This document shows, one piece after another, positions 3,734 through 18,124 of a stretch of 40,494 bases of DNA. Made by a program: the position numbers and the translations under genes. The DNA is taken from NCBI GenBank assembly GCA_020248905.1, contig JADCGR010000001.1, positions 1-40,494 of the forward strand, in the 5' to 3' direction. The stretch comes from Curvibacter sp. (GTDB lineage: Bacteria > Pseudomonadota > Gammaproteobacteria > Burkholderiales > Burkholderiaceae_C). The notes under the pieces were generated by a model. That model had not been told where the DNA came from. It did no database searches and worked only from the letters and a program-made list of their open reading frames with translations. Every line of letters begins with the position of its first letter. Position 1 is the stretch's first letter.

Positions 3734-3844
3734 GGTATCGCGGGCCGTCACGAGGACCCGCGATACCTGAACCGGGCCTGCTGACACCCTGCTCGCCCGT
3801 GCGCGAACAGGCCCGGTGGATCCTGCCGGCGTCCTGGCAGGATC
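3734..3844. repeat. Three tandem perfect inverted repeats between receptor stop and AEC pseudogene
   Basis: Three hairpins sit side by side. The first has 11-base arms GGTATCGCGGG (3734-3744) and CCCGCGATACC (3757-3767). The second has 10-base arms ACCGGGCCTG (3771-3780) and CAGGCCCGGT (3808-3817). The third has 9-base arms GATCCTGCC (3819-3827) and GGCAGGATC (3836-3844), which overlaps the stop codon of the ZnuD-like receptor. On the minus strand they lie directly after that gene, so they probably end or protect its transcript. None has a clear T-run, so this is not a classic intrinsic terminator. Confidence 0.8.
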
Positions 3845-5858
3845 AGAACGTCAGCTGCAAGCCCACCCGCAGGCTGCGGCCGGGCAGCGGCACGCGGCCA
3901 GGCTTGGTCTGAGTGAGGAAGGACGAAGAAGAGTAAGCCAGCTTGTCGCCGATATTGTCCAGCCGGGCGTACCACAGGGCCGGCACACCTCCGAGCTTGT
4001 CCCGCAGACTCAGGCCGGCATTCCACAGCGCGTAGCCGCCCGTGGTCTGCTGACCCGAGGGCACGCGGTCCTGGCCCGCGTAGGCGTCCACACCCAGGCG
4101 CGCGCTCCAGGCGGCGTGGCTCCACTGCAGGGTGGCGCCCACGCGATGCGGCGCGATGCGCGGCAGGGGCTGGCCGGTGCTGGTGTTCTCGGCACGCACG
4201 GTATCGGCACGCAGGAGCAGGTCCAGCTTGTGCTGGGCATCGAGCAGGCGCACGTTGCCGTCTGCCTCGGCCCCGACGAAACGGGCTCGTACCTGGGTGT
4301 AGGTGTATTGCGGCGGGGAGGCCCCCAGGTCCGTACCCTCCAGCGAGATGTAGTTGCTGAAGCGATGCTGGAAGACCTGTACCCGGGCACGATGGGCGCC
4401 ACGCTTCCATGCAGCGCCTACATCGACGTTGGCCGAGCGCTCCTTGCCGAGGTTGGCATTGCCGATCTCCTCGGCATTCGTCGCCACGTGTTCGCCGTTG
4501 GCGTAGAGCTCGTAATGCCTGGGCGCGCGCTCGTTGAGCGAGAGGTTGGACGTGAGCTGCCATTCAGGCGCGACATTCCAGAGCGCGCCCAGGGCGTAGC
4601 TTGCGGGGTTGAAGCTGCGCGAGCCAGGCGTGAAAGTGGCGTTGCCAGCAATGCCGAAGGACTCCACGCGCACCGACTCCACCCGCACTCCGGCGCTGAG
4701 CTTGCCCCAGCCGGTCCCGAGCTCCTCATGCACGAAGGCGGCGCTGCTGCGCGTGCGACTGTGGGGGGCGTAGGCCTCAGCGCCGTCCGCAGAGAAGCGG
4801 CTGTCGTCCAGCTGCAAGCCAACTAGGCCGTCGAGCTTGCCGAAGCGCGCATGACGCGCCTCGATTCGCAGGTCGTTGCCGGTGGTCTTGAAAAAGGTCC
4901 CTACGGTGCTCCCCTCGAATTCGGAGTGCTGGTAGTCCGTACGGCTGAACTTGGCACGCACGCTCTGCCAAGCCGGTCCCAGATCACGCAACTCGCCCTC
5001 CACGGCCAGACGGTTGGAGCGCATGCGGATCGTCACATCATCTTCGGCGACGGCGCCGTAGTTCTTGTCGTAGGTGGACAGCGACGCACCGAGGTAGCCA
5101 CGGTCGAAATGCATGGTGCCTCCGACGGCGCCACCATAGGTCTCACTGGCGGAGTTGCAGATACGGCGCGCATTGGACGAGGCGCCAGGCTTGGTGCAGT
5201 CCAGGGCGATCGGCACGGCCACGTCCTCGGTCTTGCGCGACATCGCGTCCACGTGCAGGCTGAACCGATCGTTGCCACCGTCGAGCACGACGGCGCCTCC
5301 CTGCTCCCTGTTGCCGCTGGCCAAGCCCGCGTCGAGACGGCTCGCGACGCCCCCCTGCTTGCCAAACAGGGGTTCGCGGTGGATACGGCCATCAATCACA
5401 TTGACGACCCCACCCACGGCGCTGCCACCATACTGAAGCACGCCAGGTCCACGCAGGACCTCAACGCGTTCGATCAGCAGGGGGTCCAGCGTCACCGCAT
5501 GGTCGACGCTGAGGGCCGAAAGGTCGAGGTTGCCGCCGCCATTGCTCAGGATGGTGATGCGGTCGCCATCGAGGCCGCGGATCACCGGCCGGCTGGCATT
5601 GGGGCCGAAATAGCTGCTGCTCACGCCGGGCAAGCCGTTGAGCATCTCGCCGAGCGTGGTGTCGCGGCGTTGCAGCAGCTCGGCGGCGTTGAGCTGGTCG
5701 ACCGGGGCGATCAGCTCGGTGGCACCCAGCGGGTTGGCGGTCACGACCACGGGCGCCAGGGTGGCGTTTTCATGGGCCCAGCCGCTGCAGGCCAGCAGGC
5801 TGACGCTGGCCACGGCGCTGAGTCGGAAGCGATGAATGAAGCTTGATGTTCTTGACAT
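3843..5858 (-). CDS. znuD: TonB-dependent receptor, ZnuD-like (probable zinc uptake)
   Basis: About 671 residues from the ATG at 5858 (MSRTSSFIHRF), with a signal peptide ending near SGWAHENATL. An upstream in-frame ATG at 5891 gives an odd hydrophobic extension and is not preferred. The plug domain shows LAPVVVTANPLG (TonB box area), LNGLPGVSSSYFGPNASRP, VIRGLDGDRITILSNGGG and GPGVLQYGGSAVGGVVNVID; the barrel ends in LRVGLQLTF with a terminal aromatic residue. The plug wording and the cysteine pair in a barrel loop (ALDCTKPGASSNARRICNS) resemble ZnuD zinc receptors of Neisseria and relatives. It is the last gene of a run headed by a Fur-family regulator, next to a His-rich protein, which supports zinc. 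The substrate remains inference. Confidence 0.85.
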   Translation of the reverse strand: MSRTSSFIHRFRLSAVASVSLLACSGWAHENATLAPVVVTANPLGATELIAPVDQLNAAELLQRRDTTLGEMLNGLPGVSSSYFGPNASRPVIRGLDGDRITILSNGGGNLDLSALSVDHAVTLDPLLIERVEVLRGPGVLQYGGSAVGGVVNVIDGRIHREPLFGKQGGVASRLDAGLASGNREQGGAVVLDGGNDRFSLHVDAMSRKTEDVAVPIALDCTKPGASSNARRICNSASETYGGAVGGTMHFDRGYLGASLSTYDKNYGAVAEDDVTIRMRSNRLAVEGELRDLGPAWQSVRAKFSRTDYQHSEFEGSTVGTFFKTTGNDLRIEARHARFGKLDGLVGLQLDDSRFSADGAEAYAPHSRTRSSAAFVHEELGTGWGKLSAGVRVESVRVESFGIAGNATFTPGSRSFNPASYALGALWNVAPEWQLTSNLSLNERAPRHYELYANGEHVATNAEEIGNANLGKERSANVDVGAAWKRGAHRARVQVFQHRFSNYISLEGTDLGASPPQYTYTQVRARFVGAEADGNVRLLDAQHKLDLLLRADTVRAENTSTGQPLPRIAPHRVGATLQWSHAAWSARLGVDAYAGQDRVPSGQQTTGGYALWNAGLSLRDKLGGVPALWYARLDNIGDKLAYSSSSFLTQTKPGRVPLPGRSLRVGLQLTF

Positions 5859-5932: not shown

Positions 5933-6361
5933 TCAGCGAGAAACGGGCGGTCCGCGCGCGACAAAGGCCACGCAGGGACGCGGCTGCAGCGCCTGCAGCA
6001 CGACCCAGGCGGGTAGCAGGGGCAGGGCCGTGGGCAGGAGCAGCTGCGGCACGCTGGCGGGCACATCCTGCGCCACCGGATCGTAGAGGCGGCAGCCCTC
6101 TTCCTCCCCGGCGGGGGCGAGCAGGTGGGCCAGCAGGCCGTGGGGGGCGTGCGCATCGTAACCCGCGCTGTGGCTGTGGCTGTGGCCGTGGCCGTGGTCA
6201 TGCGCGTGCGCCAGACCGGAGCCGCCGGCCGCTGGACCATGTGCATGCAGCACACGATGCGCCAGGCCAAGGGCCTGGGCCCAGAGCAGCGCCAGCACGA
6301 GCAGCGCCGTGCCCGGCAGCAGCCATCGCGGATTGCGGGTCGTGGACCGGGGGCGCAACAT
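5933..6361 (-). CDS. His-rich membrane/exported protein, DUF2946-like
   Basis: 142 residues. A hydrophobic segment at about 13-35 (LLPGTALLVLALLWAQALGL) is followed by HRVLHAHG and a His run at about 51-66 (HAHDHGHGHSHSHS). There is a second hydrophobic stretch near 108-125 and a C-terminal FVARGPPVSR, similar to the ARxPP ends of DUF2946 proteins. The His run suggests binding of zinc or a similar metal on the periplasmic side. It lies between the DUF3299 gene and the ZnuD-like receptor, all on the minus strand, so a metal buffer or delivery role is likely. The family call is by resemblance only. Confidence 0.6.
   Translation of the reverse strand: MLRPRSTTRNPRWLLPGTALLVLALLWAQALGLAHRVLHAHGPAAGGSGLAHAHDHGHGHSHSHSAGYDAHAPHGLLAHLLAPAGEEEGCRLYDPVAQDVPASVPQLLLPTALPLLPAWVVLQALQPRPCVAFVARGPPVSR
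6167..6196. repeat. Hexanucleotide tandem repeat encoding the His run
   Basis: Five adjacent copies of GCYGTG lie at 6167-6196, with a sixth degenerate copy at 6197-6202. On the coding (minus) strand they read as alternating His-Ser and His-Gly codons of the His-rich protein. A change in copy number would lengthen or shorten the metal-binding run by two residues per unit without breaking the frame. Confidence 0.8.
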
Positions 6362-6389: not shown

Positions 6390-6908
6390 TTACTTCACCG
6401 GGACCGCCTCGACGATGCGGTAGTACAGGCCATAGGGGTCGTCACGCAGCACCGACAGGCGCCCTTGCACCACCACCGGCTCCATGCCATAGCGGATGGG
6501 CGTCTTGGTTCGCACCTCGACCATGCTCTCGGGTCCGCCGGGCAGGCAAAACGAGCAGGTCAGCGGCACCGAAGTCAGCAGGAAATGCGTCTGCCGCTCG
6601 CCCGGCTCCAGCGGCATCATGAAACCCTGCACACGCTGCGGCTTGCCGTCCAGCGCCAGGATCTCGGGCGGGAAGACGGGGAGCACTCGGTTCTTCTCAA
6701 GCCGGGTCTTCACATTCGTGAGGAAGGACCAGGGCAACACATCCGAGCGCTGCTTCAGCGGCGGAAAGGGACTTTGCGCGCCATGCGTACCCGCGCCGCT
6801 GCCGGGCGGGCCACTGGGCACGCCGCCTTCGATGGGCGAACTCAGCAGCTGGGCCTGGGCCAGTCCCGCGCAGAGCAGTGCGGCCAGCAGGAGCAATTTA
6901 GTGCTCAT
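6390..6908 (-). CDS. DUF3299 family exported protein
   Basis: 172 residues from the ATG at 6908 (MSTKLLLLAALLCAGLAQA, a clear signal peptide). An upstream extension in this frame is Arg-rich and lies inside the preceding gene, so I reject it. The mature part shows LPWSFLTNVKTRLEKNRVLPVFPPEI, GFMMPLEPGERQTHFLLTS, then SFCLPGGPESMVEV and a C-terminal VVVQGRLSVLRDDPYGLYYR. That order is typical of DUF3299, whose CxxC-like region (TCSFCLPG) may bind metal or thiol partners. It overlaps the small Cys-rich gene by 11 bases. In Pseudomonas aeruginosa a DUF3299 protein sits with a similar ABC transporter in a zinc-repressed set (PA4063-PA4066), as I recall. Function unknown. Confidence 0.78.
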   Translation of the reverse strand: MSTKLLLLAALLCAGLAQAQLLSSPIEGGVPSGPPGSGAGTHGAQSPFPPLKQRSDVLPWSFLTNVKTRLEKNRVLPVFPPEILALDGKPQRVQGFMMPLEPGERQTHFLLTSVPLTCSFCLPGGPESMVEVRTKTPIRYGMEPVVVQGRLSVLRDDPYGLYYRIVEAVPVK

Positions 6909-7134
6909 GGCGCATGCCGCAATACTTGCCCAGAGCCAGGCCCTTGCAGGCCGCCTGCAGCTCCTTTTGGCAGACTTCGAACTTCTTGCCCGACTCCAGG
7001 CACCGCGCCGCGGCTTCGTGCGCGGCCGCCATGGCGCGGTGACGCTGGACGTCCTTGGCAATGGCCTTGGCGTCGTGGGCCTGGGCCGACAGCACCGGCA
7101 GCGCCAGGACCAGCAGGCAAAGCAGTTTTCTCAT
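6898..7134 (-). CDS. Small exported Cys-rich protein with twin CX9C-like spacing
   Basis: 78 residues from the ATG at 7134, preceded by AAGGA seven bases upstream; another ATG at 7149 lacks such a site. Residues 1-19 (MRKLLCLLVLALPVLSAQA) form a signal peptide. The mature helix-prone part carries four cysteines as C-x9-C, seven residues, C-x8-C (RCLESGKKFEVC, then ACKGLALGKYC) and ends in MRHEH. This spacing looks like a two-helix hairpin held by two disulfides. It lies between the permease and DUF3299 genes and overlaps the latter, so it is probably a periplasmic part of the metal system. I know no named family for it. Confidence 0.72.
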   Translation of the reverse strand: MRKLLCLLVLALPVLSAQAHDAKAIAKDVQRHRAMAAAHEAAARCLESGKKFEVCQKELQAACKGLALGKYCGMRHEH

Positions 7135-7145
7135 GATCAAGTCCT

Positions 7146-8345
7146 TCATCGTTCATTGAGCAGCGCGGCCGCTTCGCTGCGGTAGGCCGCCAGCACCGGC
7201 AGCGCCGCGGCCAGTGCCGCGACCGTCAGAGCCAGGACCGGCACCCAGAGTTCCTGCGCCAGCCAGACGGTGCCGCTGATCGGCAGCGACCTGTCCTGCT
7301 CCAGCAACCAGCCTAGCAGAGCTGTCAAGCCATGGCCGGCCGCCAGCCCCAGGGCCGTGGCCAGCAGGGCCAGCCACAGGGCCTCGCACAGCAGCAGGGC
7401 CGCCAGGCGACGCGGCGGCGCGCCCAGCAGGCGCAGCAGGGCCAGGTCGGCGCGGCGTTCCCGCAAGGCACTCCAGAGCGCGATGAATACGCTCAGGCCG
7501 GCACTCAGCAGCAGGACCGCGGCAAAGCCGCGCAGCACGTCCGTGCCCACCCCCACCAGACGCAGCAGGCGCGTGATCTCCAGAGCAGGCGCAGCCGCCT
7601 GCAGGCCCGTGGCCTCGTTGACGTAGCGCGTAAAGGTCACGGCCGCCAGCGGGCTGCGGTAGCGGATCAGGGCCAGCGTGATTTCTCGCCCGGCCTCCAG
7701 CGCCCGCCGCTCGGCCTCGTCCTCGGGCTCGCCTTCGTGCACGCGCCAGACCGATTCGCTGGAAGTCAACACGAGACGGTCGAGCACGCAGCCGCAGGGC
7801 GCGAGCACACCGCTCACCAGGTAGGGCTCCTCGCCATGCACCTCGCCTCCCCCACCCAGGCCGTGGACCCCGGCAAACAGGCCGCCTGCGGTCAGGCCCG
7901 TGTTGCGCGCCACCTGGGCTCCGAGCACGGCTTCCATCGGCGCCTGCCACCACTGGCCCTGGGCCAGCGCAGCATCGTAATGCGCGGGGTAATCGCGCGT
8001 GGTGCCCACGATGCGGAAACCCTCGTAGCTGTCGCCCAGGCTCAGCGGTATGAGCTGGGCCACGCGCGCATCCTGCGCCAGCGCCTGCGCCTCGCTCAGG
8101 GGTATGTTGCCCGGCGGCACGTCGATGTGGAACACGCCGGAGAGGATGAGCTGCAGCGGGCTGCCCTTGGCGCCCACGACGGCATCGATGCCCGCGACGT
8201 CGCGCTCGAAGGCGCGGTCCAGCTGGGTGCGCACCAGCAGCACCAGGGTGATGGCCGCCAGCGCCAGGCTGAGCAGCAACAGGTTCAGCGCGCTGGCCAG
8301 CGGCCGTGCCCAGAGGTAGCGCCAGGACAGGGACAGGGTGTTCAC
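7146..8345 (-). CDS. ABC transporter permease, FtsX/MacB type
   Basis: 399 residues. A GTG start overlaps the ATPase stop as GTGA. The topology is that of MacB/LolC/FtsX permeases: one membrane helix at about 17-38, a long periplasmic domain (about 40-260, with GAKGSPLQLILSGVFHID and APCGCVLDRLVL), then three helices around 270-300, 317-345 and 365-390. RERRADLALLRLLGAPPRRL between helices is the characteristic FtsX cytoplasmic loop. Such permeases usually extract lipids or lipoproteins or drive periplasmic partners; they are not ZnuB-type importers. The neighbouring Fur-family gene and ZnuD-like receptor suggest a role in metal homeostasis, mechanism unknown. Confidence 0.87.
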   Translation of the reverse strand: MNTLSLSWRYLWARPLASALNLLLLSLALAAITLVLLVRTQLDRAFERDVAGIDAVVGAKGSPLQLILSGVFHIDVPPGNIPLSEAQALAQDARVAQLIPLSLGDSYEGFRIVGTTRDYPAHYDAALAQGQWWQAPMEAVLGAQVARNTGLTAGGLFAGVHGLGGGGEVHGEEPYLVSGVLAPCGCVLDRLVLTSSESVWRVHEGEPEDEAERRALEAGREITLALIRYRSPLAAVTFTRYVNEATGLQAAAPALEITRLLRLVGVGTDVLRGFAAVLLLSAGLSVFIALWSALRERRADLALLRLLGAPPRRLAALLLCEALWLALLATALGLAAGHGLTALLGWLLEQDRSLPISGTVWLAQELWVPVLALTVAALAAALPVLAAYRSEAAALLNER

Positions 8346-8995
8346 GCCACGGACTCCATCGCGTCCAGGTCCAGCACACGGGCCTGCGGCAGGGCGCTGC
8401 GCACGCGTGCATCGTGGGTGGCGATCACCAGTGTGGCGCCGCAGCGCTGCGCGCTCGCCTGCAGCAGCGTCAACGCATCATGCGCGGCGACGTCGTCCAG
8501 ACTGGCCGTAGGCTCGTCGGCCAGGATTACCTTCGGCTGCAACAGCACGGCCCGCGCCAGCGCCACCCGCTGGGCCTGCCCGCCCGAGAGCGTGGCGGGG
8601 CGGCGCGCCGCCAGCTCGCTGACGCCCAGGGCCTGCAAGGCGGCGGCCATGGCTTCCCGGTCCACGGACAGGCCGGCAGCAAAATAGACCAGTTCCAGGT
8701 TGCCGGCGACCGTGAGCGCCTCGCTCAGATGCAGCCTCTGCGGCAAAAAGCCGACGGTGCGCGCGCGCCAGGCATCGGCCTGCGCGGGCCCGAGCGCTGC
8801 GAGCGCCTGGCCCGCCACGGTGACCTCGCCGCCAGACGGCGTCATGAGGCCGGCGACCAGGGCCAGCCAGCTCGACTTGCCGCGGCCCGAACGGCCGCGC
8901 AGCAGCAAGGTCTCGCCTTGCGCCAGCGTCAGATCGAGAAAGTGGATGTGCGCGCCACCTGCGTAGCGGCAGGCCAAGCCTTTGCTGTGGATCAT
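8342..8995 (-). CDS. ABC transporter ATP-binding protein, LolD/MacB type
   Basis: 217 residues from the ATG at 8995 (MIHSKGLACRYAGG), which overlaps the regulator's stop as ATGA. A longer in-frame reading lacks family features. Seen: a Walker A-like LRGRSGRGKSSWLAL (GRSGRGKSS in place of GxSGSGKST, so the usual terminal Thr is Ser), Q-loop VGFLPQRLHLSE, signature LSGGQAQRVALARA, Walker B VILADEPTASLDD and H-loop IATHD. It pairs with the permease directly downstream through a GTGA overlap. It powers whatever the FtsX-type permease does. Confidence 0.92.
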   Translation of the reverse strand: MIHSKGLACRYAGGAHIHFLDLTLAQGETLLLRGRSGRGKSSWLALVAGLMTPSGGEVTVAGQALAALGPAQADAWRARTVGFLPQRLHLSEALTVAGNLELVYFAAGLSVDREAMAAALQALGVSELAARRPATLSGGQAQRVALARAVLLQPKVILADEPTASLDDVAAHDALTLLQASAQRCGATLVIATHDARVRSALPQARVLDLDAMESVA

Positions 8996-9471
8996 GCCGG
9001 CCTGCGGCCAGCCGTGCCCGCCAGCGTGCAACCAGCGCACACCCCACGCACGGACAGGTCCACGCTGAGACCGTGATGGCCTACCGATTCCAGCGCACGC
9101 AGTGCCGAGCGGGCGGCGCGCTCCAGTTGAGCCGCGCTGTCGTGCAACTCGAAGTTGCGGTGACAGGCCTGGCATTCGAAACGCGGCGAGGCCTCGGGCG
9201 AGTCCGACGCCACACGGTAGTGACGCACGCGGTCCGCATCCACATGGCACAGCAAAAGACCGGCCTGGGAGAGCCGGTCCAGCAGGCGGTACAGCGTCAC
9301 GCGGTCCAGGTCCGCGGTTTGCTCCGAATGCAGAGCCTCCAGCAGTTCGGCATGGGTCCAACTGCGCTCGAGATGCGCGTGCAGCCATTTCAGAACAGCA
9401 CGCGCGGCGTGCGTACGCCGCAGACCGTGCTCGGACAGCAGTCGGTCGATCGATGCGTCGGTTTCAGGCAT
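8992..9471 (-). CDS. zur: Fur family transcriptional regulator, probably Zur
   Basis: 159 residues. The N-terminal winged helix has LRRTHAARAVLKWLHAH and WTHAELLEALH, then DRVTLYRLLDRLSQAGLL, the DNA-reading helix of Fur proteins. The dimer domain has two CxxC pairs, FECQACHRNFEL and VRGVCAGC, which form the structural zinc site; HVDADRVRHYR supplies a likely regulatory metal site. It heads the leftward transcript and sits beside two palindromes at 9489-9537, so autoregulation is likely. Zur rather than Fur is inferred from the ZnuD-like receptor, His-rich protein and COG0523 GTPase. The gene overlaps the ATPase by 4 bases. Confidence 0.82.
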   Translation of the reverse strand: MPETDASIDRLLSEHGLRRTHAARAVLKWLHAHLERSWTHAELLEALHSEQTADLDRVTLYRLLDRLSQAGLLLCHVDADRVRHYRVASDSPEASPRFECQACHRNFELHDSAAQLERAARSALRALESVGHHGLSVDLSVRGVCAGCTLAGTAGRRPA

Positions 9472-9488
9472 GTGGCTACCCCAGTTAC

Positions 9489-9511
9489 TTAATGCAACTG
9501 AATTGCGTTAA
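9489..9511. promoter_or_regulatory. Candidate Zur operator 1
   Basis: A 23-base dyad: TTAATGCAA, five bases, TTGCGTTAA, with one mismatch between the arms. Its core is GCAA-N5-TTGC. It lies 18 bases before the regulator's start codon in an AT-rich stretch between divergent genes. It shares core and size with the next palindrome, which supports binding by one dimeric regulator. Confidence 0.7.
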
Positions 9512-9514
9512 TAT

Positions 9515-9537
9515 ATACCGCAACACAGTTGCAGTAT
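9515..9537. promoter_or_regulatory. Candidate Zur operator 2
   Basis: A second 23-base dyad: ATACCGCAAC, three bases, GTTGCAGTAT, with one mismatch. Core GCAA-N5-TTGC is the same as in operator 1, and the centres are 26 bases apart. The pair sits between the regulator operon (left) and the COG0523/receptor/CobN-like operon (right), so both directions could be repressed together when metal is plentiful. Confidence 0.68.
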
Positions 9538-9604
9538 TACATGGCGTCTAGCACCTTACCCCGCCCAAGCGGGAATAACCCCGATTGTCGGCGATCCGGC
9601 CCAC

Positions 9605-9626
9605 GTCGGCCGAGCCACAGGCCGAC
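9605..9626 (+). other. Hairpin in the leader of the COG0523 operon
   Basis: Seven-base perfect arms GTCGGCC (9605-9611) and GGCCGAC (9620-9626) enclose an 8-base loop, about 70 bases before the GTPase start. It has no T-run. It may be a leader structure or chance in GC-rich DNA. The rest of 9538-9695 shows only a small CCCGC/GCGGG hairpin near 9560. Confidence 0.3.
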
Positions 9627-9695
9627 ACCCGAGCGGAAGGTGTGGGCATGGAGTCGTGCACGCACTGTTTTCTTCTTGCTTCCAGGAAATCACCC

Positions 9696-10940
<1,245 letters not shown>

Positions 10941-10974
10941 CCCGCTTCTTCTCCATCAGCCACCGCCTCTGACC

Positions 10975-13215
10975 ATGAAAAACAAAATGCCAACTTCCCG
11001 TCCGCCATTCCCCGTGCGCCTGCTCAGCGGGCTGATCCTCTGCCAGTGCCTGCCCTGCGCCGCACTGGCCGATGAAGTGGCCGAAAAAACACTCGGCAAC
11101 GTGGTGATCACCGCCACCACCCAACCCATGGAAGCCGCCGACGCCCCGGCCGCCGTCACCGTCATCAAGCGCCAGGAGATCGACTCGCGCAACGTCACCC
11201 GCCCGGCCGACGCGCTCAAGGCTGTGCCCAGCCTCTACATCGGCGCGCAGGCCGATGGGCAGATCAATCGCAATGCCGGCGGCACTGGCGCCGTCACACT
11301 GCGCGGTATTCCCGGCGCGCGGACCCTGGTGCTGCTCGATGGTCAGTCTTTGCTGGGGGCGAACTCGGGCGCGATCAACTGGCGCGCCATCAATGTCGAC
11401 GAACTGGAGCGCATCGAGGTCGTGCCTGGCCCCTTCTCCTCGCTCTACGGCAGCGGCGCCATCGGCGGCGTGATCAACATGATCACCAAACAACCCGACC
11501 GGCAGGAATTCGTGGCGCGCTGGAAGCGCGGATATGGCGACGCGGCGGGCGACGACCTGGGCATCTTCTTTCGCGACAAGATGAGCAACGGTCTGGGCCT
11601 GCAAATCAGCGCCAGCCAGATCAGCCGCGAAGACTACGCCAACGACGCGGTGCTCGCGCCCCCCTCGACAGGCGCCGCGGGCACCGCCGTCACCGGCGCT
11701 GTGCCCCTGCAGACGCCCACCGGCGGCTCCACCTACCAGGTCGGCACCAAAGGCCTGTCGCCCTGGCGCCAGGACAATTTGGGCGCGCGGCTCAGCTTCG
11801 ACCTGGACGCCCGCAGCCGGCTGTACGCCGGTGTATCGCGCTTGGAGTTCAGCGAGTCGCGCCAGCCCTATGAGAGCTGGCTGCGTGATGGCAGCAACAA
11901 TGTGGTGAGCAGTGGCACCCTGGGCATCAACGGCCAGCGTGTGGTGCTGCAGGAGAGCGCCTTTGTCAATTCGCAGTCGCGGCAGACCGCCACGCGATAC
12001 GTCGCAGGATACGACGGCATGCTGGGCCGCGAACGCAAGCTCAAGCTTGACCTGGCGCAGATCAGGGACGACGCCCGCTCCCAGGTCATCACCAGCGGCC
12101 AGCCTGTGGCCAGCGGCACAGGGCGCCTGAGCCTGACTCCCAGCGACACCACGGACCTGCTGGCCCAGATCAGCGAAGGCCTGGGCGAGAAAGCCTTCCT
12201 GGTCTATGGCCTCGCGGTCCGCAAGGCCGAGGTGGCCCAACGCCAGTGGGCGCTGTGGAACTGGAACGATCCGACCACACAGAGCACGCTCAATGAGGGT
12301 TACGATGGCCGCTCGACCACCACGTCGCTGTACGGACAGGTCGAATGGCAGGTGACGGACCCGCTGACGCTCTACCTCGGGGGACGTTACGACCAGTGGC
12401 GTACCAGCGGCAGGTACTTCAAGAACACGGCACCCACTGTGAATGCAAGCTACGCGGAACGCCAGGAAGCGGCCTTCAGTCCCAAGGTCTCGGGCGTCTA
12501 CAAGCTGGCTCCGGCCCTGTCGCTGCGCGGGTCCATCGGCCAGTCCTTCCTGGCACCTAGCAATCTCGACCTGTACGCGCGCTCCTTTCACGGCCCCAAC
12601 ACCTTCCTCAACGATCCCAATCTCAAGCCCGAGCGCGGCACGACCTGGGAAGTGGGCAGCCTCTGGCAGGCCACGCCCGACATCAGCAGCGGCCTGACCT
12701 ATTACGAGTCGCGCCTCAAGGACCTGATCATCCTCAAGCAACTCAGCACCTTCACGCGCCAGTACGTGAACATCGGCGAAGCCAAGGTGCGCGGCATCGA
12801 ATGGACAGGCAAGGCCCAGCTGATGGCTGGCCTGCGTCTGGACGCCAACTACAGCTGGATCGACGCCACGACGGTGGATAACGACGCCGAACCGGCCAGC
12901 GTGGGCAAGCGCCTGACTTTTGTGCCAAAAAACATGGCATACGCCGGACTCACGGGTAAACGCGGCGCCTGGAGCAGCACGCTCGATCTGCGCTACACCG
13001 GCAAGGTCTACGGCAACACCGACAACTCCGACACCGTGCAGGGCGTACCCGGCGCCTATGACGCCTATGTCTGGGCCAACGCCAAACTCGGTTACCAGTA
13101 CAGCAAGCACGTGCGTGTCAACCTGGGTGTGACCAACCTGACCGACCGCAAGGTCTACCAGTCGATCCTCATGCCCGGTCGCAGCTGGAACACCGAACTC
13201 GTCTACGCCATGTGA
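10975..13215 (+). CDS. TonB-dependent outer-membrane receptor (metal complex or tetrapyrrole type)
   Basis: 746 residues from the ATG at 10975 (MKNKMPTSRPPFPVRLL), with a signal peptide ending near CAALADE. The frame is open further upstream, but that part overlaps the GTPase gene out of frame. The TonB box area is TLGNVVITAT; the plug continues with RPADALKAVPSLYIG, VTLRGIPGARTLVLLDGQSL and GPFSSLYGSGAIGGVINMIT. The barrel has LKPERGTTWEVG and a C-terminal VTNLTDRKVYQS and WNTELVYAM. The end is GYQYS to VYAM rather than a terminal Phe. It lies between a COG0523 GTPase and an exported CobN-like protein, overlapping the latter by 4 bases. The layout matches HmuR-HmuS of haem uptake, so the ligand may be a metallo-tetrapyrrole. 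Confidence 0.87.
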   Translation: MKNKMPTSRPPFPVRLLSGLILCQCLPCAALADEVAEKTLGNVVITATTQPMEAADAPAAVTVIKRQEIDSRNVTRPADALKAVPSLYIGAQADGQINRNAGGTGAVTLRGIPGARTLVLLDGQSLLGANSGAINWRAINVDELERIEVVPGPFSSLYGSGAIGGVINMITKQPDRQEFVARWKRGYGDAAGDDLGIFFRDKMSNGLGLQISASQISREDYANDAVLAPPSTGAAGTAVTGAVPLQTPTGGSTYQVGTKGLSPWRQDNLGARLSFDLDARSRLYAGVSRLEFSESRQPYESWLRDGSNNVVSSGTLGINGQRVVLQESAFVNSQSRQTATRYVAGYDGMLGRERKLKLDLAQIRDDARSQVITSGQPVASGTGRLSLTPSDTTDLLAQISEGLGEKAFLVYGLAVRKAEVAQRQWALWNWNDPTTQSTLNEGYDGRSTTTSLYGQVEWQVTDPLTLYLGGRYDQWRTSGRYFKNTAPTVNASYAERQEAAFSPKVSGVYKLAPALSLRGSIGQSFLAPSNLDLYARSFHGPNTFLNDPNLKPERGTTWEVGSLWQATPDISSGLTYYESRLKDLIILKQLSTFTRQYVNIGEAKVRGIEWTGKAQLMAGLRLDANYSWIDATTVDNDAEPASVGKRLTFVPKNMAYAGLTGKRGAWSSTLDLRYTGKVYGNTDNSDTVQGVPGAYDAYVWANAKLGYQYSKHVRVNLGVTNLTDRKVYQSILMPGRSWNTELVYAM

Positions 13216-16200
13216 GCGCCGACATGAGCCTGCCATCGATGGACTTGCGCGCGTGCTGCCGCCGCGCCCTCTGGGCTCTGGGCCTGCCGCTGGCCTTGCT
13301 GGCCGGCAACGCCCAGGGGGGCGAGCGCATCGCCGTGTTTTCGACCAAGATCCTGCTGGAGCACCGCTACAAGCTCATGGAGGCGGACGCCCGCGCCGCC
13401 GGCCTGGAACTGGCGTGGACTCAGGTAGACGTCGAAGGAGAAGCCGGTGTGCGCCGCGTGCTTGAAGGCGCCAAGCTGGTGCTCGTCGATAGCCACCGCA
13501 ACGAAGACCGGGCTGTGATCGAGCGATATGCCGCTGAGGCCTTGCGCCAGACCGGCCTGCCCAGCGTCAGCGTGAACAACACGCCCCTGTCCCCCGGGGG
13601 GCAACGCGGCATCGGCCTGCCCGAGGAACAGGCGCGGCGCGTCTATGCCTACTACGTCAGTGGTACGCCCAGCAATCGCGCGGCACTCTTCCAGTACCTG
13701 GCCGCGCTGGTGCGCGCCCAGGACTTGGCCGCGGTACCACCGCCGCAGCCACTGCCGCCCTCCGCCATCTACCACCCGCGTCACCCCCAGCGTCTGGTCA
13801 CGGACCTGCCGTCCTTCCTGGCTTGGTGGCAACAGGCCACGGGCCGAGACTGGCGCACGCGCCCGGTGATCGCAATGGAAATGGCCTCGACCTATGTGGC
13901 CGAAAGCCAGACTCGCATGCTGGACGAAACGGTGCAGGCCGTCGAAGCGGCCGGTGCCGTGCCGCTGCTCTTTTACCGCTCCACCCGGCTGGGGCCGGGC
14001 CGCCCGCAAGTAGGCACGCCCGGGCCAGAACCCCTGATCACTCTCGAAGGGAGGACGCTGCCTCATGTGCTGCTGGTCAACACCTTTCTCGGCATCAACC
14101 CGGACGGGCGCCGCGCCTGGCACCGAAGCCTGGGCATCCCGACGATCAATGTGCTGGCCTACCGTGAAGGCAACCGGGCCGACTATCTGCGCAATCCGGC
14201 CGGCGTGAGCAGCTTCTTTCTGCCCTTCACCGTGACCAACGCCGAGTACATCGGCCTGCAGGACCCGGTGGTGCTGAGCACCAACGAAGGCGGCGAGCTC
14301 GTGCCCATGCCCGAGCAGATGCAGTTGCTGGTGGGCAAGGCGGTGCGGCTGGCGCAGTTGCAGATGATGACCCATGCCGACAAACGCGTGGCGCTGCTGT
14401 TCTGGAACCATCCGCCAGGAGAGCGCAACCAGGGCGCCTCCAACCTCAATGTGCCGCGCTCAATCGAACAGGTCGTGGCGCACCTGCGCGCTGAGGGTTA
14501 TGCCTTCGACGCGGTGCGCGAGCAGACCCTCATCGACACCGTGGCTCAGATGCTGCGCCCCAGCTACCGGGCCGGCACCCTACCCGAGCTGATGAAAACG
14601 GCGCACTGGGACTTCCTTCCCTTGGACGACTACCGCCGTTGGTACGCACAACTTCCCGAGTCGGTGCGCCGGCCTATCGACGCGGCCTGGGGCGCACCGG
14701 AAAAAAGCGCCTGGATCGCTCGCCGACGCGGCGTGACGGGTTTTGTCATCCCGCGGCTGGAGCTCGGGCACTTGGTCGTGCTGCCTCAGCCCGCGCGCAA
14801 CGAGACCGCCGCCAGCGGCCGGGACGAGGGCAAGCTGTTCCACGACACCAAAATGCCGGTGCACCACGCCTACCTGGCCACCTACCTTTGGGTGCGCGAG
14901 CATTTCCGCGCCGACGCCATCGTGCACTTCGGCACCCATGGCACGCAGGAATGGACGCCGGGCAAGGAGCGCGGGCTCTGGGCCTACGACGAACCCAATC
15001 TGCTGGTGGGCAACACACCCGTGGTCTATCCCTACATCGTCAACAACATCGGCGAGGCGCTGAACGTCAAGCGCCGGGGCCGCGGCGTCATCGTGAGCCA
15101 CCAGACCCCGCCCTTCGCGCCGGCCGGTCTGACCAGCGACTTCGTGCGCATCAATGACCTGATCCGTGAATACCAGGCGCTGGACGAAGGCCTGGTGAAA
15201 GACAACAACCGCCGCCTCATCATCGAGCAGGCTGTGAAGATGAACATCCACCGGGACATGAAGTGGAAGGTCGCCGACCTGGAGCGCGAGTTTCCGCGCT
15301 TCCTGCGCGAGATCGAGGACTACCTCGAGGAGCTCGGCGCCAGCATGCAGCCGCTGGGCCTGCACACCCTGGGGCAGACGGCCGAGGCCGCGCACCGCGT
15401 CAGCAACGTGATGCAGATGCTGGGCACGCCGCTGCTCGAAGCCCTGGGGCTGCAAGCGGGCAGCTTCAAGACCGACTACCGCCAGTTGCAGCAGAGCCGG
15501 CCCTTCCGCTTCGTGCAGGACCATGTGCTTGAAGGCAGGCCGCTGGACAGCACGGACCCAAGGCTGCGCGAACTGGCGCAACGCGGCCGCGAGTACCTGC
15601 AGAACCTGGAGGCCGGAGTCGAGCTGCAGGCGCTGAGCCGCGCCTTGTCGGCGCGCTGGATCGACCCGTCTTACGGTGGCGACCCGATCCGCAACCCCGA
15701 CGCACTGCCCACGGGACGCAACCTCTATGGCTTCGACCCCTCGCGCATTCCCACACGCGCGGCCTACGAGGCCGGCCAGCAGGCTCTCAAGCAACTCGTG
15801 GCCGACTACCGCCTGAACCACGGCCAGGCGCCGCAGAAGCTGGCCTTCACGCTCTGGAGCACGGAGACCCTGCGCCATCTCGGCATGCTGGAGTCGCAAA
15901 TTCTCTACGCCCTGGGCGTGCGACCTCGTTGGGACGAAGGGGGTCGGGTGGTCGGTCTCGAAGTGATACCCGCCGCTGAGCTGGGACGTCCGCGCATCGA
16001 CGCCGTGATCTCCCTCACGGGCCTGTACCGCGACCAGTTTCCCAATCTCATGGAGCGGCTCAACGAGGCCGTTGCCCTGGTCGCTGCACTCGACGAAGCA
16101 GCCGTGCAGAACCCCGTGCGCGCCCACACCGAGCGGGTGCGCCAGCAGTTGCAGACGCGAGGCGTCGCCGCAACGGACGCCCGGGACTTTGCGCTGACCC

Positions 16201-17234
16201 GCATCTACGGCAACGAAAGCGGTGACTACGGCACCGGGCTGACCGAGGCCACCCTGGCCTCGGAGCACTGGAACGAGGACGATGGCAAGCTGGCCGGCCT
16301 CTACCTCAGGCGCATGTCCTGGGCCTACGGGCCTGACCCCGCGCGGTGGAGCCGCAAGCTCAACGACCCGCAGGGACAAGAGATCAACGTCTATGCTGAA
16401 CAACTGCGCGGCACAAACGCGGCCGTGCTGTCGCGTTCATCGAACCTGCGCGGCCTGCTCGATACCGACCATCCCTTCGAATACCTCGGGGGCCTGGCGC
16501 TGGCGGTGCGCCAGCTCGACGGCGCCAGCCCCACGCTCTACGTGGCCAATCTGCGCGACCCTGGCCGCGCCAAGCTGGAACGCGCGGAGACCTTCATCGC
16601 CAAGGAGCTGCGCAGCATCTACCACCACCCGCGCTGGATTGGCGAGATGCAGCGCGAGGGCTACGCCGGCACGCTGCAACTGCTCAACACGGTCAACAAC
16701 TTCTGGGGCTGGCAGGTCATGGACCGCCAGACTGTGCGCGCCGACCAATGGCAGGAGTTCCACGAAATCTATGTGCAGGACCGCCATCGTCTGGGTCTGC
16801 GCCAGTGGTTTGAGCGACACAACCCCGATGCAATGGCCCAGGTCGTCGAGCGCATGCTCGAAGCCGTGCGCAAAGACTACTGGCAGGCCGACGAGCGCAC
16901 CGTGCGCGAGCTCGTGAGTGCCTACCAGCAGCTGAGCCGTCGGCATGACATCGTCTCGTCCAACGCCACCTTCCGCGCCTACGTGGCCGAACTGGCGGCC
17001 GGTTACGGCCTGGGTCTGGGCAAGCCGGCAACAACCCAGCGTGCTACCGGCGCCCCCCAAACAGCGGTAGCCCCGCCTGCCGATCCCACAGTCCGAGGGC
17101 AGGAATTGCGCGTGGTGCCCCGCGCAGCCCAGGCCTTCGAGAAACTGATCTGGACCTATGCTCTGTTGATCGGCCTCATCGTGGCCGGCGGCATCGGCTA
17201 CCAGGCTTGGCGCACCCGACGTCCCTCCCTTTGA
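13212..17234 (+). CDS. Exported CobN/HmuS-like chelatase-family protein with C-terminal membrane anchor
   Basis: About 1,336-1,340 residues. A GTG at 13212 overlaps the receptor stop (GTGA); an ATG at 13224 is also possible. A hydrophobic signal (ALWALGLPLALLAGNAQG) opens the protein, and one membrane helix near the end (WTYALLIGLIVAGGIGYQAW) anchors it. The body is a CobN/BchH-type large chelatase subunit: VHFGTHGTQEWTPGK near residues 566-580, PVVYPYIVNNIGEALNVKRRG, SHQTPPFAPAGL, PRIDAVISLTGLYRDQFPN and TRIYGNESGDYGTGL. Cytoplasmic CobN works with CobS and CobT; neither is here and this protein is exported. The following genes match HmuU/HmuV, so it is better compared with HmuS, which removes metal from haem. 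Metal and ligand are unknown. Confidence 0.88.
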   Translation: MSADMSLPSMDLRACCRRALWALGLPLALLAGNAQGGERIAVFSTKILLEHRYKLMEADARAAGLELAWTQVDVEGEAGVRRVLEGAKLVLVDSHRNEDRAVIERYAAEALRQTGLPSVSVNNTPLSPGGQRGIGLPEEQARRVYAYYVSGTPSNRAALFQYLAALVRAQDLAAVPPPQPLPPSAIYHPRHPQRLVTDLPSFLAWWQQATGRDWRTRPVIAMEMASTYVAESQTRMLDETVQAVEAAGAVPLLFYRSTRLGPGRPQVGTPGPEPLITLEGRTLPHVLLVNTFLGINPDGRRAWHRSLGIPTINVLAYREGNRADYLRNPAGVSSFFLPFTVTNAEYIGLQDPVVLSTNEGGELVPMPEQMQLLVGKAVRLAQLQMMTHADKRVALLFWNHPPGERNQGASNLNVPRSIEQVVAHLRAEGYAFDAVREQTLIDTVAQMLRPSYRAGTLPELMKTAHWDFLPLDDYRRWYAQLPESVRRPIDAAWGAPEKSAWIARRRGVTGFVIPRLELGHLVVLPQPARNETAASGRDEGKLFHDTKMPVHHAYLATYLWVREHFRADAIVHFGTHGTQEWTPGKERGLWAYDEPNLLVGNTPVVYPYIVNNIGEALNVKRRGRGVIVSHQTPPFAPAGLTSDFVRINDLIREYQALDEGLVKDNNRRLIIEQAVKMNIHRDMKWKVADLEREFPRFLREIEDYLEELGASMQPLGLHTLGQTAEAAHRVSNVMQMLGTPLLEALGLQAGSFKTDYRQLQQSRPFRFVQDHVLEGRPLDSTDPRLRELAQRGREYLQNLEAGVELQALSRALSARWIDPSYGGDPIRNPDALPTGRNLYGFDPSRIPTRAAYEAGQQALKQLVADYRLNHGQAPQKLAFTLWSTETLRHLGMLESQILYALGVRPRWDEGGRVVGLEVIPAAELGRPRIDAVISLTGLYRDQFPNLMERLNEAVALVAALDEAAVQNPVRAHTERVRQQLQTRGVAATDARDFALTRIYGNESGDYGTGLTEATLASEHWNEDDGKLAGLYLRRMSWAYGPDPARWSRKLNDPQGQEINVYAEQLRGTNAAVLSRSSNLRGLLDTDHPFEYLGGLALAVRQLDGASPTLYVANLRDPGRAKLERAETFIAKELRSIYHHPRWIGEMQREGYAGTLQLLNTVNNFWGWQVMDRQTVRADQWQEFHEIYVQDRHRLGLRQWFERHNPDAMAQVVERMLEAVRKDYWQADERTVRELVSAYQQLSRRHDIVSSNATFRAYVAELAAGYGLGLGKPATTQRATGAPQTAVAPPADPTVRGQELRVVPRAAQAFEKLIWTYALLIGLIVAGGIGYQAWRTRRPSL

Positions 17235-17250
17235 TCCCGACCTCATCAAC

Positions 17251-17742
17251 ATGAACGCCATCGAAACCCTGCTCTACGAAATCACGCGTCTCTTTCTCAA
17301 CCCGGTGCTGATCCTGCTCTGTCTGATGTTCATCTACGCGCTGTTCACCCTGGGCATGCTGCTGCACGACCTGTTGCGCCGCGCCTGGGGCCGGCCGGCG
17401 GGCCTGGCCCTGCAAGCGCATCTGCAGCAGCACCCCGGTCTGAACCAGGACAAGCTGGAGCTGCTGGTGCTGCGCAAGATCGAGCTACAGCGGCTGGTCA
17501 GCCGCATCGCGCCCATGCTGGGTCTGGTGGCCACGATGATCCCCATGGGACCGGCCCTGGTGGCCGTTTCGGCCGGCAACGCCGAGGGCATGGCCCGACA
17601 TCTGGTCGTCGCATTCGCTGCAGTCATCGTGGCCCTGGTGGCGGCATCGATCACCTACGGCGTGCAGACGGTGCGCCGTCGCTGGCTGCTCGAAGAACTG
17701 GCTCAGATCCTGGAGGACCGCGATGCAAGCGCCCGGATCTGA
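17251..17742 (+). CDS. MotA/TolQ/ExbB-type membrane protein (HmuU-like)
   Basis: 163 residues. Three hydrophobic segments: about 15-38 (FLNPVLILLCLMFIYALFTL), 85-108 (IAPMLGLVATMIPMGPALVAV) and 118-140 (HLVVAFAAVIVALVAASITYGV). The second carries the GLVATMIPMGPAL pattern of the TolQ/ExbB proton-channel core. It is shorter than ExbB. It starts 16 bases after the CobN-like gene and overlaps the DUF2149 gene by 20 bases. Together with DUF2149 it probably forms an ExbB-ExbD-like motor that energises this system's receptor or chelatase. Confidence 0.82.
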   Translation: MNAIETLLYEITRLFLNPVLILLCLMFIYALFTLGMLLHDLLRRAWGRPAGLALQAHLQQHPGLNQDKLELLVLRKIELQRLVSRIAPMLGLVATMIPMGPALVAVSAGNAEGMARHLVVAFAAVIVALVAASITYGVQTVRRRWLLEELAQILEDRDASARI

Positions 17743-18124
17743 GCCCCAAGCCCTGTACCCCGCCCCGCGCCGCCTGCGCCTCAACGTGCTGGACGACGAC
17801 GATGCGGACGATCCCATCCTCAGCGTGGTCAACATCGTCGACGTCTTTCTGGTCATCATCGCCGTGCTGCTGATCGCCGTGATCGAGAACCCGCTCAACC
17901 CTTTTTCCACCGATCACACCATCGTGATCAGGAACCCGGGGCAACCGAACATGAGCATGGTCGTCAAGGAAGGGCAGGAGCTGAAACAGTACAAATCCTC
18001 CGGCCAGATCGGCGAAGGCCAGGGTCGCAAGGCCGGCACGGCCTACCAGCTGCAAAACGGCACTATGGTCTACGTACCGGAAGCCGCCGAAGGCACGCGG
18101 GCGCCTCCCGCCGCCTCACGCTGA
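17723..18124 (+). CDS. DUF2149 protein (HmuV-like, ExbD-like topology)
   Basis: 133 residues. A short N-terminal cytoplasmic part with an acidic run ([21 protein letters not shown]) leads into one membrane helix ([21 protein letters not shown]) and a periplasmic tail with [18 protein letters not shown]. The acidic residue before or in the helix and single-span layout resemble ExbD/TolR. The ATG at 17723 has GGAGG six bases upstream and lies inside the end of the previous gene, so translation is coupled. It is last in the operon, converging on msrA. Confidence 0.85.

What the first reader, a model, noticed from the sequence alone, without database searches (positions are those of the whole stretch)
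8992..18124. Zinc-type regulon joined to an exported CobN/HmuS-like metal-stripping set
Two operons diverge from twin palindromes. One has a Fur-family regulator, FtsX-type ABC transporter, DUF3299, His-rich protein and ZnuD-like receptor. The other has a COG0523 GTPase, a TonB receptor, a 1,336-residue exported CobN-like protein, a MotA/TolQ/ExbB-like protein and DUF2149. The last four match the HmuR-S-U-V haem set of Bacteroidetes, but here they sit in a zinc context with a metal-chaperone GTPase. This suggests uptake of a chelated metal, perhaps a metallo-tetrapyrrole, and removal of its metal in the periplasm during zinc limitation. I know of no characterised case.
Basis: partly seen in the sequence, partly recalled or inferred. 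Interest (0 to 1): 0.85.

Follow-up and report, generated by a model that had tools for sequence, protein, structure and literature searches.

The report
Zinc-controlled metal-stripping cassette replacing ZnuABC
In this bacterium, the spot beside a predicted zinc-sensing gene where most examined relatives keep the standard zinc pump holds instead a five-gene set that likely pulls a zinc-carrying molecule into the cell envelope and is predicted to strip the metal from it with a relative of a gut-bacterial enzyme that takes iron out of heme.

Summary
The regulator is very probably Zur: all 31 orthologue loci I fetched (of 71 other genomes with a match) carry the same GCAA-N5-TTGC palindromes upstream, and 22 of 31 carry znuCBA. 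In the window that slot, between zur and msrA, holds zigA, a TonB receptor, a CobN-like protein, an ExbB-like protein and DUF2149. The genome shows no ZnuA, no ZnuB-type set, and one ZIP permease.

The CobN-like protein matches HmuS heme dechelatase best in the PDB. It keeps HmuS's His538/His1209/Glu1212 but lacks its Met-rich insertion and Met79/His254 heme site. At position 79, 51 of 55 "A-type" relatives have Pro; the window and the one other zigA-linked locus (L137) have His.

The ExbB-like/DUF2149 pair lies by nearly every exported CobN-like gene (each 102 of 113) and by 0 of 5 true CobN genes. Other branches carry Fur boxes or copper genes.

The kind is not unknown: Pseudomonas aeruginosa PA1922-PA1925 is Zur-controlled, function undetermined. 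Substrate, direction and energy source are untested. Verdict: new variant of a known kind.

The parts
9489..9511 (.). Zur operator 1 (zur side), 23-bp palindrome
   Evidence: Matrix score 32.3; the 57 sites of 31 relatives have median 28.4
9515..9537 (.). Zur operator 2 (zigA side), 23-bp palindrome
   Evidence: Matrix score 26.5; 26-bp spacing, the commonest in relatives, 13 of 26 spacings
8992..9471 (-). zur, Fur-family zinc regulator
   Evidence: Pfam FUR 28.5 bits; orthologue loci carry the palindromes 31 of 31 and znuCBA 22 of 31; no Zur model of NCBIfam matches it
8342..9007 (-). ABC ATPase of the zur operon
   Evidence: Pfam ABC_tran
7146..8345 (-). FtsX-type permease
   Evidence: Pfam FtsX, MacB_PCD; found in 27 of 31 zur loci
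6898..7149 (-). small exported-looking protein, 83 aa
   Evidence: No Pfam match; found in 27 of 31 zur loci
6390..6968 (-). DUF3299 protein; start uncertain, probably an inner ATG
   Evidence: Pfam DUF3299 23.1 bits; found in 27 of 31 zur loci
5933..6361 (-). His-rich protein, 142 aa, 13 His
   Evidence: No Pfam match; composition
3843..5855 (-). ZnuD-like TonB-dependent receptor
   Evidence: NF038289 ZnuD 314.5 bits, under its cut-off of 950
9696..10940 (+). zigA-like COG0523 GTPase with CICC motif
   Evidence: NF038288 ZigA 584.5 bits, cut-off 600; motif
10975..13215 (+). TonB-dependent receptor of the cassette; 2 His in 746 residues
   Evidence: Pfam; 2 of 399 family genomes at E 1e-60, both with this operon; His count
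13224..17234 (+). exported-looking CobN/HmuS-like class I chelatase homologue; His91, His572, His1083, Glu1086 at HmuS 79, 538, 1209, 1212
   Evidence: PF02514 967 bits; best PDB match HmuS 9d26; residues
17251..17742 (+). ExbB/TolQ-like proton-channel protein
   Evidence: Pfam 22.2 bits against 22.9; model pLDDT 94.3, best Foldseek matches ExbB and TolQ, E about 0.05, probability 0.98-0.99
17723..18124 (+). DUF2149, ExbD-like by its membrane-span Asp40
   Evidence: Pfam DUF2149 95.4 bits; Asp40 in 103 of 103

Best explanation
The window holds a five-gene cassette (zigA, TonB receptor, exported-looking HmuS-like chelatase, ExbB-like protein, DUF2149) at the place where most examined relatives keep znuCBA beside the predicted zur; it would be switched on by zinc shortage and likely feeds the cell by stripping zinc from an imported chelate in the periplasm. 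Shown: gene content, the twin operators and their conservation at zur, no znuABC found, the kept bis-histidine site, the missing heme-holding site, and the steady company of the ExbB-like/DUF2149 pair. Inferred: (1) Zur with zinc represses both operons. (2) The receptor takes up an organic zinc complex. (3) The chelatase runs as a dechelatase, the chelate sitting between His572 and His1083. (4) The ExbB-like/DUF2149 pair powers this machine from the proton gradient, doing what ATP-driven CobS/CobT or ChlI/ChlD motors do for cytoplasmic relatives (recalled). (5) Freed zinc enters through the ZIP permease and ZigA hands it on. The ligand is unknown; a tetrapyrrole is the first candidate because this is what the superfamily handles.
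For: Zur: 31 of 31 fetched orthologue loci have at least one palindrome upstream and 23 of 31 two or more (one of these, in L239, may lie in coding sequence); 13 of 26 spacings are exactly 26 bp. 22 of 31 have znuCBA, Pfam-confirmed in examples; in one of the 22 (L240) it lies about 4 kb off.

Replacement: in 9 of the 31 loci the order is zur(-), znuCBA(+), msrA(-) or its mirror image; the window has zur(-), cassette(+), msrA(-) (read). No ZnuA; the only ABC-3 match, 24.6 bits, is a BtuC-type permease by eye; one ZIP.

Dechelatase site: best PDB match HmuS. His538, Glu577 and Asp1208 are kept. His1209 and Glu1212 are kept in the window and in 51 of 51 covered A-type rows; 36 of 36 B and 15 of 15 C rows have Asp/Gln, and true CobN has Asn or Thr with Asp. 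H538A abolishes HmuS activity (PMC12583661, section read).

Zinc rather than heme iron: no Met-rich insertion, no Met79/His254; His at position 79 seen only in window, P0002-P0004 and L137; receptor poor in His (2, and 5 in L137, against 9-18 in nine others).

Motor: ExbB-like and DUF2149 each in 102 of 113 exported CobN-like loci, 0 of 5 true CobN loci; Thr95 99 of 99, Asp40 103 of 103. Of the 11 loci without DUF2149, 10 end within 552 bases of the chelatase gene.
Against: No expression, binding or activity data exist for this organism in any call. NCBIfam's Zur model does not match the window regulator; its only match is PerR at 20 bits, cut-off 200. Only one genome in the survey shows the exact replacement. 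L137, the only other zigA cassette seen, has a different Fur-family regulator (PerR models 47.9 bits, Zur model 28.9, all far under their cut-offs) and none of the palindromes, and its genome keeps an atypical ZnuA-like match. ZnuA is missing also in 5 of 5 sampled same-genus genomes, none of which shows an A-type cassette, so the cassette is not needed wherever ZnuABC is absent. The position-79 His may be one event, not two: the tree of the catalytic body separates L137 from the window, but holding them together is not rejected (p 0.103). Purified HmuS was active in vitro (PMC12583661), which weakens the motor step. A weak Fur-like match (12 of 19, p 0.025) overlaps the receptor's start, inside the operon; the zur-zigA intergenic region has none (10 of 19, p 0.65). 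The relation of PA1923 to this protein could not be tested.
Confidence: 0.55

Rival explanations
1. Cobalt reading: the cassette imports cobalt or a cobalt chelate, or inserts cobalt, so that cobalt can stand in for zinc during zinc shortage.
For: Suggested for the P. aeruginosa set: raised cellular cobalt in the znuA mutant (PMC4542158, passages), and a guess that PA1922 derives from a cobalt importer (PMC11761036, passages). NCBIfam names the protein CobN above cut-off, 1714.7 against 1248.
Against: The genome has a separate CobN (C57) that groups with the true CobN rows. The window protein carries the HmuS His/Glu pair that the 5 true CobN sequences lack. No CobS/CobT partner in the operon.
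Confidence: 0.17
2. Free-zinc reading: the receptor imports zinc ions and the CobN-like protein only binds or stores them in the periplasm.
For: A review assigns PA1922 to free zinc (PMC10393844, passages). Zur control fits.
Against: The receptor has 2 His in 746 residues, odd for a zinc-ion receptor. The chelatase active-site residues are kept, which storage would not need.
Confidence: 0.13
3. Heme-iron reading: an ordinary HmuS-type heme dechelatase that has fallen under Zur control.
For: Best PDB match is HmuS; the receptor scores best against the TonB-hemin model, 220.7, cut-off 316.85.
Against: Met79/His254 and the Met-rich insertion are absent. None of the heme-receptor motifs FRAP, NPNL or YNPL (recalled) occurs in the receptor. 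A Fur box at p 0.01 lies upstream of the receptor in 0 of 24 scored A-type loci, at p 0.05 in 1 of 24, and none in the window's zur-zigA region.
Confidence: 0.1
4. On the motor alone: the ExbB-like/DUF2149 pair energises the outer-membrane receptor, as ExbB/ExbD do with TonB, and not the chelatase.
For: Proposed for HmuU/HmuV (PMC12583661, passage). The ExbB-like model matches ExbB and TolQ.
Against: The pair is also kept in C-type loci, where no receptor was found directly next to the chelatase, and next to cassettes that seem to have their own exbB-exbD-tonB (L065, L092, by eye).
Confidence: 0.45

Closest known systems
Pseudomonas aeruginosa PA1922-PA1925 (Zur regulon)
   Same: TonB receptor, CobN-like, ExbD-like and hypothetical gene in one Zur-controlled operon, strongly induced in zinc depletion (PMC4542158, PMC8531726; passages read)
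   Different: No zigA in the operon as listed; P. aeruginosa keeps ZnuABC; sequence relation not tested because PA1923 was not in hand; function there undetermined
HmuR-HmuS-HmuU-HmuV heme set of Bacteroidota (HmuS, PDB 9d26)
   Same: Receptor, exported CobN-like protein, ExbB-like protein and small partner; His538/His1209/Glu1212 site
   Different: No Met-rich insertion, no Met79/His254 heme site, no HmuY or HmuT gene seen, zinc regulator instead of iron/heme control
znuCBA beside zur in related genomes of the same family
   Same: Same place between zur and msrA (9 of 31 loci), same twin operators
   Different: An ABC importer of zinc ions; here replaced by the cassette
P. aeruginosa PA4063-PA4066 (reported pyochelin-cobalt exporter, PMC13083405, passages)
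   Same: ABC ATPase, permease, small lipoprotein and His-rich protein under Zur: the same sort of set as the window's zur operon
   Different: Compared by description only, not by sequence

Membership tests
HmuS heme dechelatase | HFG(T/A)HG motif with catalytic His538 | tested here: met
   HFGTHG with His572
HmuS heme dechelatase | His1209 and Glu1212 facing His538 | tested here: met
   DHPFEYLGG, His1083 and Glu1086; the LSLDH lead-in of the published motif is LLDTDH here
HmuS heme dechelatase | Met79/His254 heme ligands at head/neck | tested here: not met
   His91 and Glu275 in the alignment
HmuS heme dechelatase | Methionine-rich insertion in domain IV | tested here: not met
   23 residues and 0 Met where HmuS rows have 99-125 residues, median 20 Met
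HmuS heme dechelatase | Removes metal from a tetrapyrrole | not testable with these tools
   Needs an assay
CobN cobaltochelatase (B12) | Curated CobN family score | tested here: met
   NF004644 1714.7 bits, cut-off 1248
CobN cobaltochelatase (B12) | Residues at HmuS 1209/1212 as in the 5 true CobN rows (Asn or Thr / Asp) | tested here: not met
   His/Glu in the window
CobN cobaltochelatase (B12) | Cytoplasmic, works with CobS/CobT in B12 synthesis | tested here: not met
   C-terminal membrane span, operon partners are TonB receptor, ExbB-like and DUF2149; location itself not measured
Zur | Operator shared with zur orthologues | tested here: met
   31 of 31 fetched loci
Zur | Adjacent zinc-uptake genes in relatives | tested here: met
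   znuCBA in 22 of 31 loci
Zur | Curated Zur family score | tested here: not met
   No Zur model matched at E 0.001; only PerR, 20 bits against 200
Zur | Zinc-dependent DNA binding | not testable with these tools
   Two CxxC motifs are present; binding needs an assay
ZigA zinc metallochaperone | Curated ZigA family score | tested here: inconclusive
   584.5 bits, cut-off 600
ZnuD | Curated ZnuD family score | tested here: not met
   314.5 bits, cut-off 950; called ZnuD-like only
ExbB/TolQ/MotA proton channels | Fold and family score | tested here: inconclusive
   Pfam 22.2 against 22.9; Foldseek best hits ExbB/TolQ, probability 0.98-0.99 but E about 0.05
ExbD-like (DUF2149) | ExbD fold | tested here: inconclusive
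   Model pLDDT 66.7, matches meaningless; membrane-span Asp40 in 103 of 103
PA1922-PA1925 operon type | Sequence orthology with PA1923 | not tested
   No PA1923 sequence could be fetched (accession not held)

The most novel reading that the evidence does not exclude
There is a class of periplasmic metal-stripping machines, a class I chelatase homologue run backwards by its own proton-driven ExbB-like/DUF2149 motor, that bacteria have wired separately to zinc (Zur), iron (Fur) and copper gene sets. The head-domain residue at the HmuS Met79 position sets the metal, and in this genome such a machine has taken over the place of the ZnuABC zinc importer.
Probability: 0.28. Interest if true: 0.86.

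Novelty: new variant of a known kind. Interest (0 to 1): 0.64.

Why it matters
It ties two literatures that I did not see joined in the listings: the undetermined Zur-controlled CobN-like operon of Pseudomonas, discussed there in terms of cobalt or free zinc, and the HmuS dechelatase. If right, bacteria short of zinc do not only bind ions but take zinc out of organic chelates in the periplasm, and can do without ZnuABC. It also gives testable residues (His572, His1083, His91), a testable power source for exported chelatases, and a possible way to predict the metal of the many proteins now named cobaltochelatase subunit CobN.

Tried and rejected
Riboswitch control: no riboswitch of any Rfam family in the window or in six related loci. 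Fur boxes for the A-type cassettes: 0 of 24 at p 0.01 and 1 of 24 at p 0.05, against 10 of 33 and 14 of 33 for B-type (L169, counted with B there, is an A-type duplicate and was no hit; for L137 the stretch scored lies inside the operon). Palindromes as a mark of the cassette itself: rejected, they mark zur. Other operators in the genome: the motif search with up to 3 mismatches gave 7 further places; all 7 were scored and reach at most 6.6. The 84 bare-core matches were not all scored, so this was not a full genome scan. Two independent origins of the position-79 His: not shown. DUF2149 structure: low-confidence model, its matches (Hsp90 and others) ignored. Loss of ZnuA as the general companion of the cassette: not supported, because same-genus genomes without an A-type cassette lack it too and A-type genomes G574, G669 and G192 keep it. 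PA1923 could not be brought into the tree.

Rows dropped: L020-L026, L138 and L139 were left out of the tree as duplicates, and frames under 1000 residues, such as L061, did not enter it; four long-branch rows were left out of the careful trees; loci with under 200 bases upstream or no receptor next to the chelatase were left out of the Fur count. Of the 71 other genomes with a zur match, 31 were fetched, mostly the better-scoring ones. Of 176 neighbour proteins listed, most of the 126 in the Pfam tally were taken.
Full report
1. What is there. The second operon is tight: gaps of 34, 8, 16 and -20 bases from zigA to DUF2149. The first runs to 3843, beyond the stated start. The genome has 3.2 Mb. 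The nearest named chelatase in the protein database is from Hylemonella sp. W303a, 83% identical, so I take the host for a member of the Comamonadaceae (inference; family of Hylemonella recalled).

2. The regulator is Zur, as far as context can say. The genome has two Fur-family genes, a strong Fur-like one and this one. NCBIfam does not name it Zur. 72 of 399 sampled family genomes, the window's own included, have a match to it. In 31 loci fetched from the 71 others, every one has the GCAA-N5-TTGC palindrome upstream; 23 have two or more, 13 of 26 spacings being exactly 26 bp and 19 of 26 being 25-27; the consensus is ATAATGCAACTCAGTTGCATTAT. The window's two sites score 32.3 and 26.5 in a matrix built without them; nothing else in the window passes 1.6. 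22 of the 31 have znuCBA, and FtsX, the small protein and DUF3299 are each found in 27 of 31 (Pfam on examples). Of the 22 with znuCBA, 21 have two or more palindromes; of the 9 without, 7 have one. That is what one operator per operon would give.

3. The cassette stands in the place of znuCBA. In 9 of the 31 loci the order is zur, znuCBA, msrA with the same orientations that the window shows for zur, cassette, msrA; in 8 more, msrA lies on that side with no znu genes found (read); the other 14 stretches show no msrA. The window's genome has no ZnuA match, and its only ABC-3 match, 24.6 bits, is a permease that sits by eye in a BtuFCD-like set. A ZIP permease is present and is the likely route across the inner membrane. 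Five of five sampled same-genus genomes also lack ZnuA and have no match to this regulator at 1e-12, so the history is not a simple one-step swap in this genus.

4. The chelatase homologue. Its best PDB match is HmuS. Matches to it at 1e-100, of any type, occur in 8 of 369 class genomes and 58 of 399 family genomes. I built a tree of 127 CobN-like proteins. It separates true CobN, Bacteroides HmuS, and several exported proteobacterial groups, here called A (57 rows, with the window and P0002), B, C and others. Position by position against HmuS: His538 is kept throughout; His1209/Glu1212 are kept in the window and in 51 of 51 covered A rows, but are Asp/Gln in 36 of 36 B and 15 of 15 C rows, mixed in the 9 others (4 His/Glu, 5 Asp/Gln), and Asn or Thr with Asp in the 5 true CobN. 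So the A type has the HmuS arrangement in the pocket where H538A kills heme turnover (PMC12583661, section 20 read). It lacks what HmuS uses to hold a heme at the head/neck: Met79/His254, and also the Met-rich insertion (sections 6 part 3, 18 and 22 read). Zinc does not change redox state, so absence of a reducing site fits zinc; this is inference.

5. A residue that follows the zinc wiring. At HmuS position 79, 51 of 55 A rows have Pro, 1 Ser, 1 His (L137) and 2 are gaps; the window and P0002 have His. Among 151 listed database relatives a simple pattern found Pro in 122, His in 4 (P0001-P0004), Ser in 1, and no match in 24; the gene neighbours of P0002-P0004 are not known to me. The receptor of the window is found in only 2 of 399 family genomes, the window's and G751 (two candidates were scored per genome, so misses are possible). 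G751's locus, L137, has the same five genes in the same order behind a divergent Fur-family gene, which was not matched by the window's regulator and lacks the palindromes. Head-domain trees join the window and L137 (support 80/88 without the position-79 column). Body trees put L137 with Hydrogenophaga-type proteins, but the AU test does not reject one clade, p 0.103. One origin, two origins or domain exchange all remain open.

6. The partners. The ExbB-like protein and DUF2149 each occur in 102 of 113 exported loci and in 0 of 5 true CobN loci, one of which (L001) is only 6 kb long. Of the 11 loci without DUF2149, 10 end within 552 bases of the chelatase gene; L043 has 3.4 kb left and shows none. 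The ExbB-like model is confident (pLDDT 94.3) and matches ExbB and TolQ, though with E near 0.05. DUF2149 carries an invariant membrane Asp, as ExbD does (recalled), but its model is poor. Some A loci seem to have a separate exbB-exbD-tonB set as well (by eye; Pfam counts of ExbB, ExbD and TonB among neighbours), which suggests that the pair serves the chelatase. Cytoplasmic class I chelatases are driven by AAA+ motors (recalled); an exported one has no ATP. I therefore propose, as inference, a proton-driven chelatase.

7. Other wirings. Upstream of the receptor, B-type loci have Fur boxes in 10 of 33 at p 0.01 (14 of 33 at 0.05), A-type in 0 of 24 (1 of 24). DUF2946, PCu(A)C or SCO1 genes lie near 20 of 52 A loci, 4 of 37 B loci, 0 of 15 C loci, 0 of 9 others and 0 of 5 true CobN loci (families identified). 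The cassette thus seems to be reused for iron and perhaps copper, with zinc a minority use. That DUF2946 means copper rests on its company here, not on a call.

8. What is known. P. aeruginosa PA1922-PA1925 rises 147-, 122-, 45- and 56-fold in a znuA mutant, and its precise role 'remains to be determined' (PMC4542158, passages). Zur binds the PA1922 promoter (PMC8531726, passages). A review reads it as free-zinc import (PMC10393844), a proteomics preprint guesses descent from a cobalt importer (PMC11761036), and another paper lists it among genes annotated for cobalt (PMC13083405); passages only. In the listings I saw no paper that reads it as an HmuS-type dechelatase; the library holds open-access papers only, the listings are capped, and I read only the passages named. 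The HmuS papers place HmuS in heme use of Bacteroidota and leave other relatives open.

9. Verdict. Observation confirmed; zinc control strongly supported; dechelation of a zinc complex the best reading at 0.55; new variant of a known kind.

Noticed in passing
L033:16240-20441 and L034:4665-8261: In methanotrophs the A-type cassette lies by genes that look like a 2-hydroxyglutaryl-CoA dehydratase D-component homologue, an activator-like protein and membrane proteins (by eye; Pfam HGD-D in 2 of 126 neighbour proteins); a reductive partner for the chelatase is conceivable.
   Followed up: partly
L065:414-6098, L085:5718-7559, L092:349-6099: A-type cassettes next to DUF2946, SCO1, PCu(A)C and PepSY genes point to a copper version of the system.
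   Followed up: partly
L152-L165, L176: C-type exported CobN-like genes have ExbB-like and DUF2149 genes just before them and, in most, an ABC ATPase gene and a TonB receptor some kb away, a different layout with an Asp/Gln pocket.
   Followed up: partly
L061:9920-14018: The second CobN-like gene of Nitrosomonas europaea ATCC 25978 reads as three separate frames.
   Followed up: no
P0109, P0110, P0119: Some exported CobN-like proteins carry an added PF11804 domain (DUF3325 by recall).
   Followed up: no
L140:8032-14574: In a same-genus genome a B-type cassette sits beside a ZnuD-like receptor (799 bits to the window's) and genes that look like tonB-exbB-exbD, with Fur-like sequences by eye between them; that receptor may serve iron there. 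The Fur score upstream of the cassette's own receptor was not significant, p 0.19.
   Followed up: partly
window:18186-23856: msrA, a TetR-family regulator gene and what look like RND efflux genes follow the cassette; msrA is also found in 17 of the 31 fetched zur loci.
   Followed up: partly
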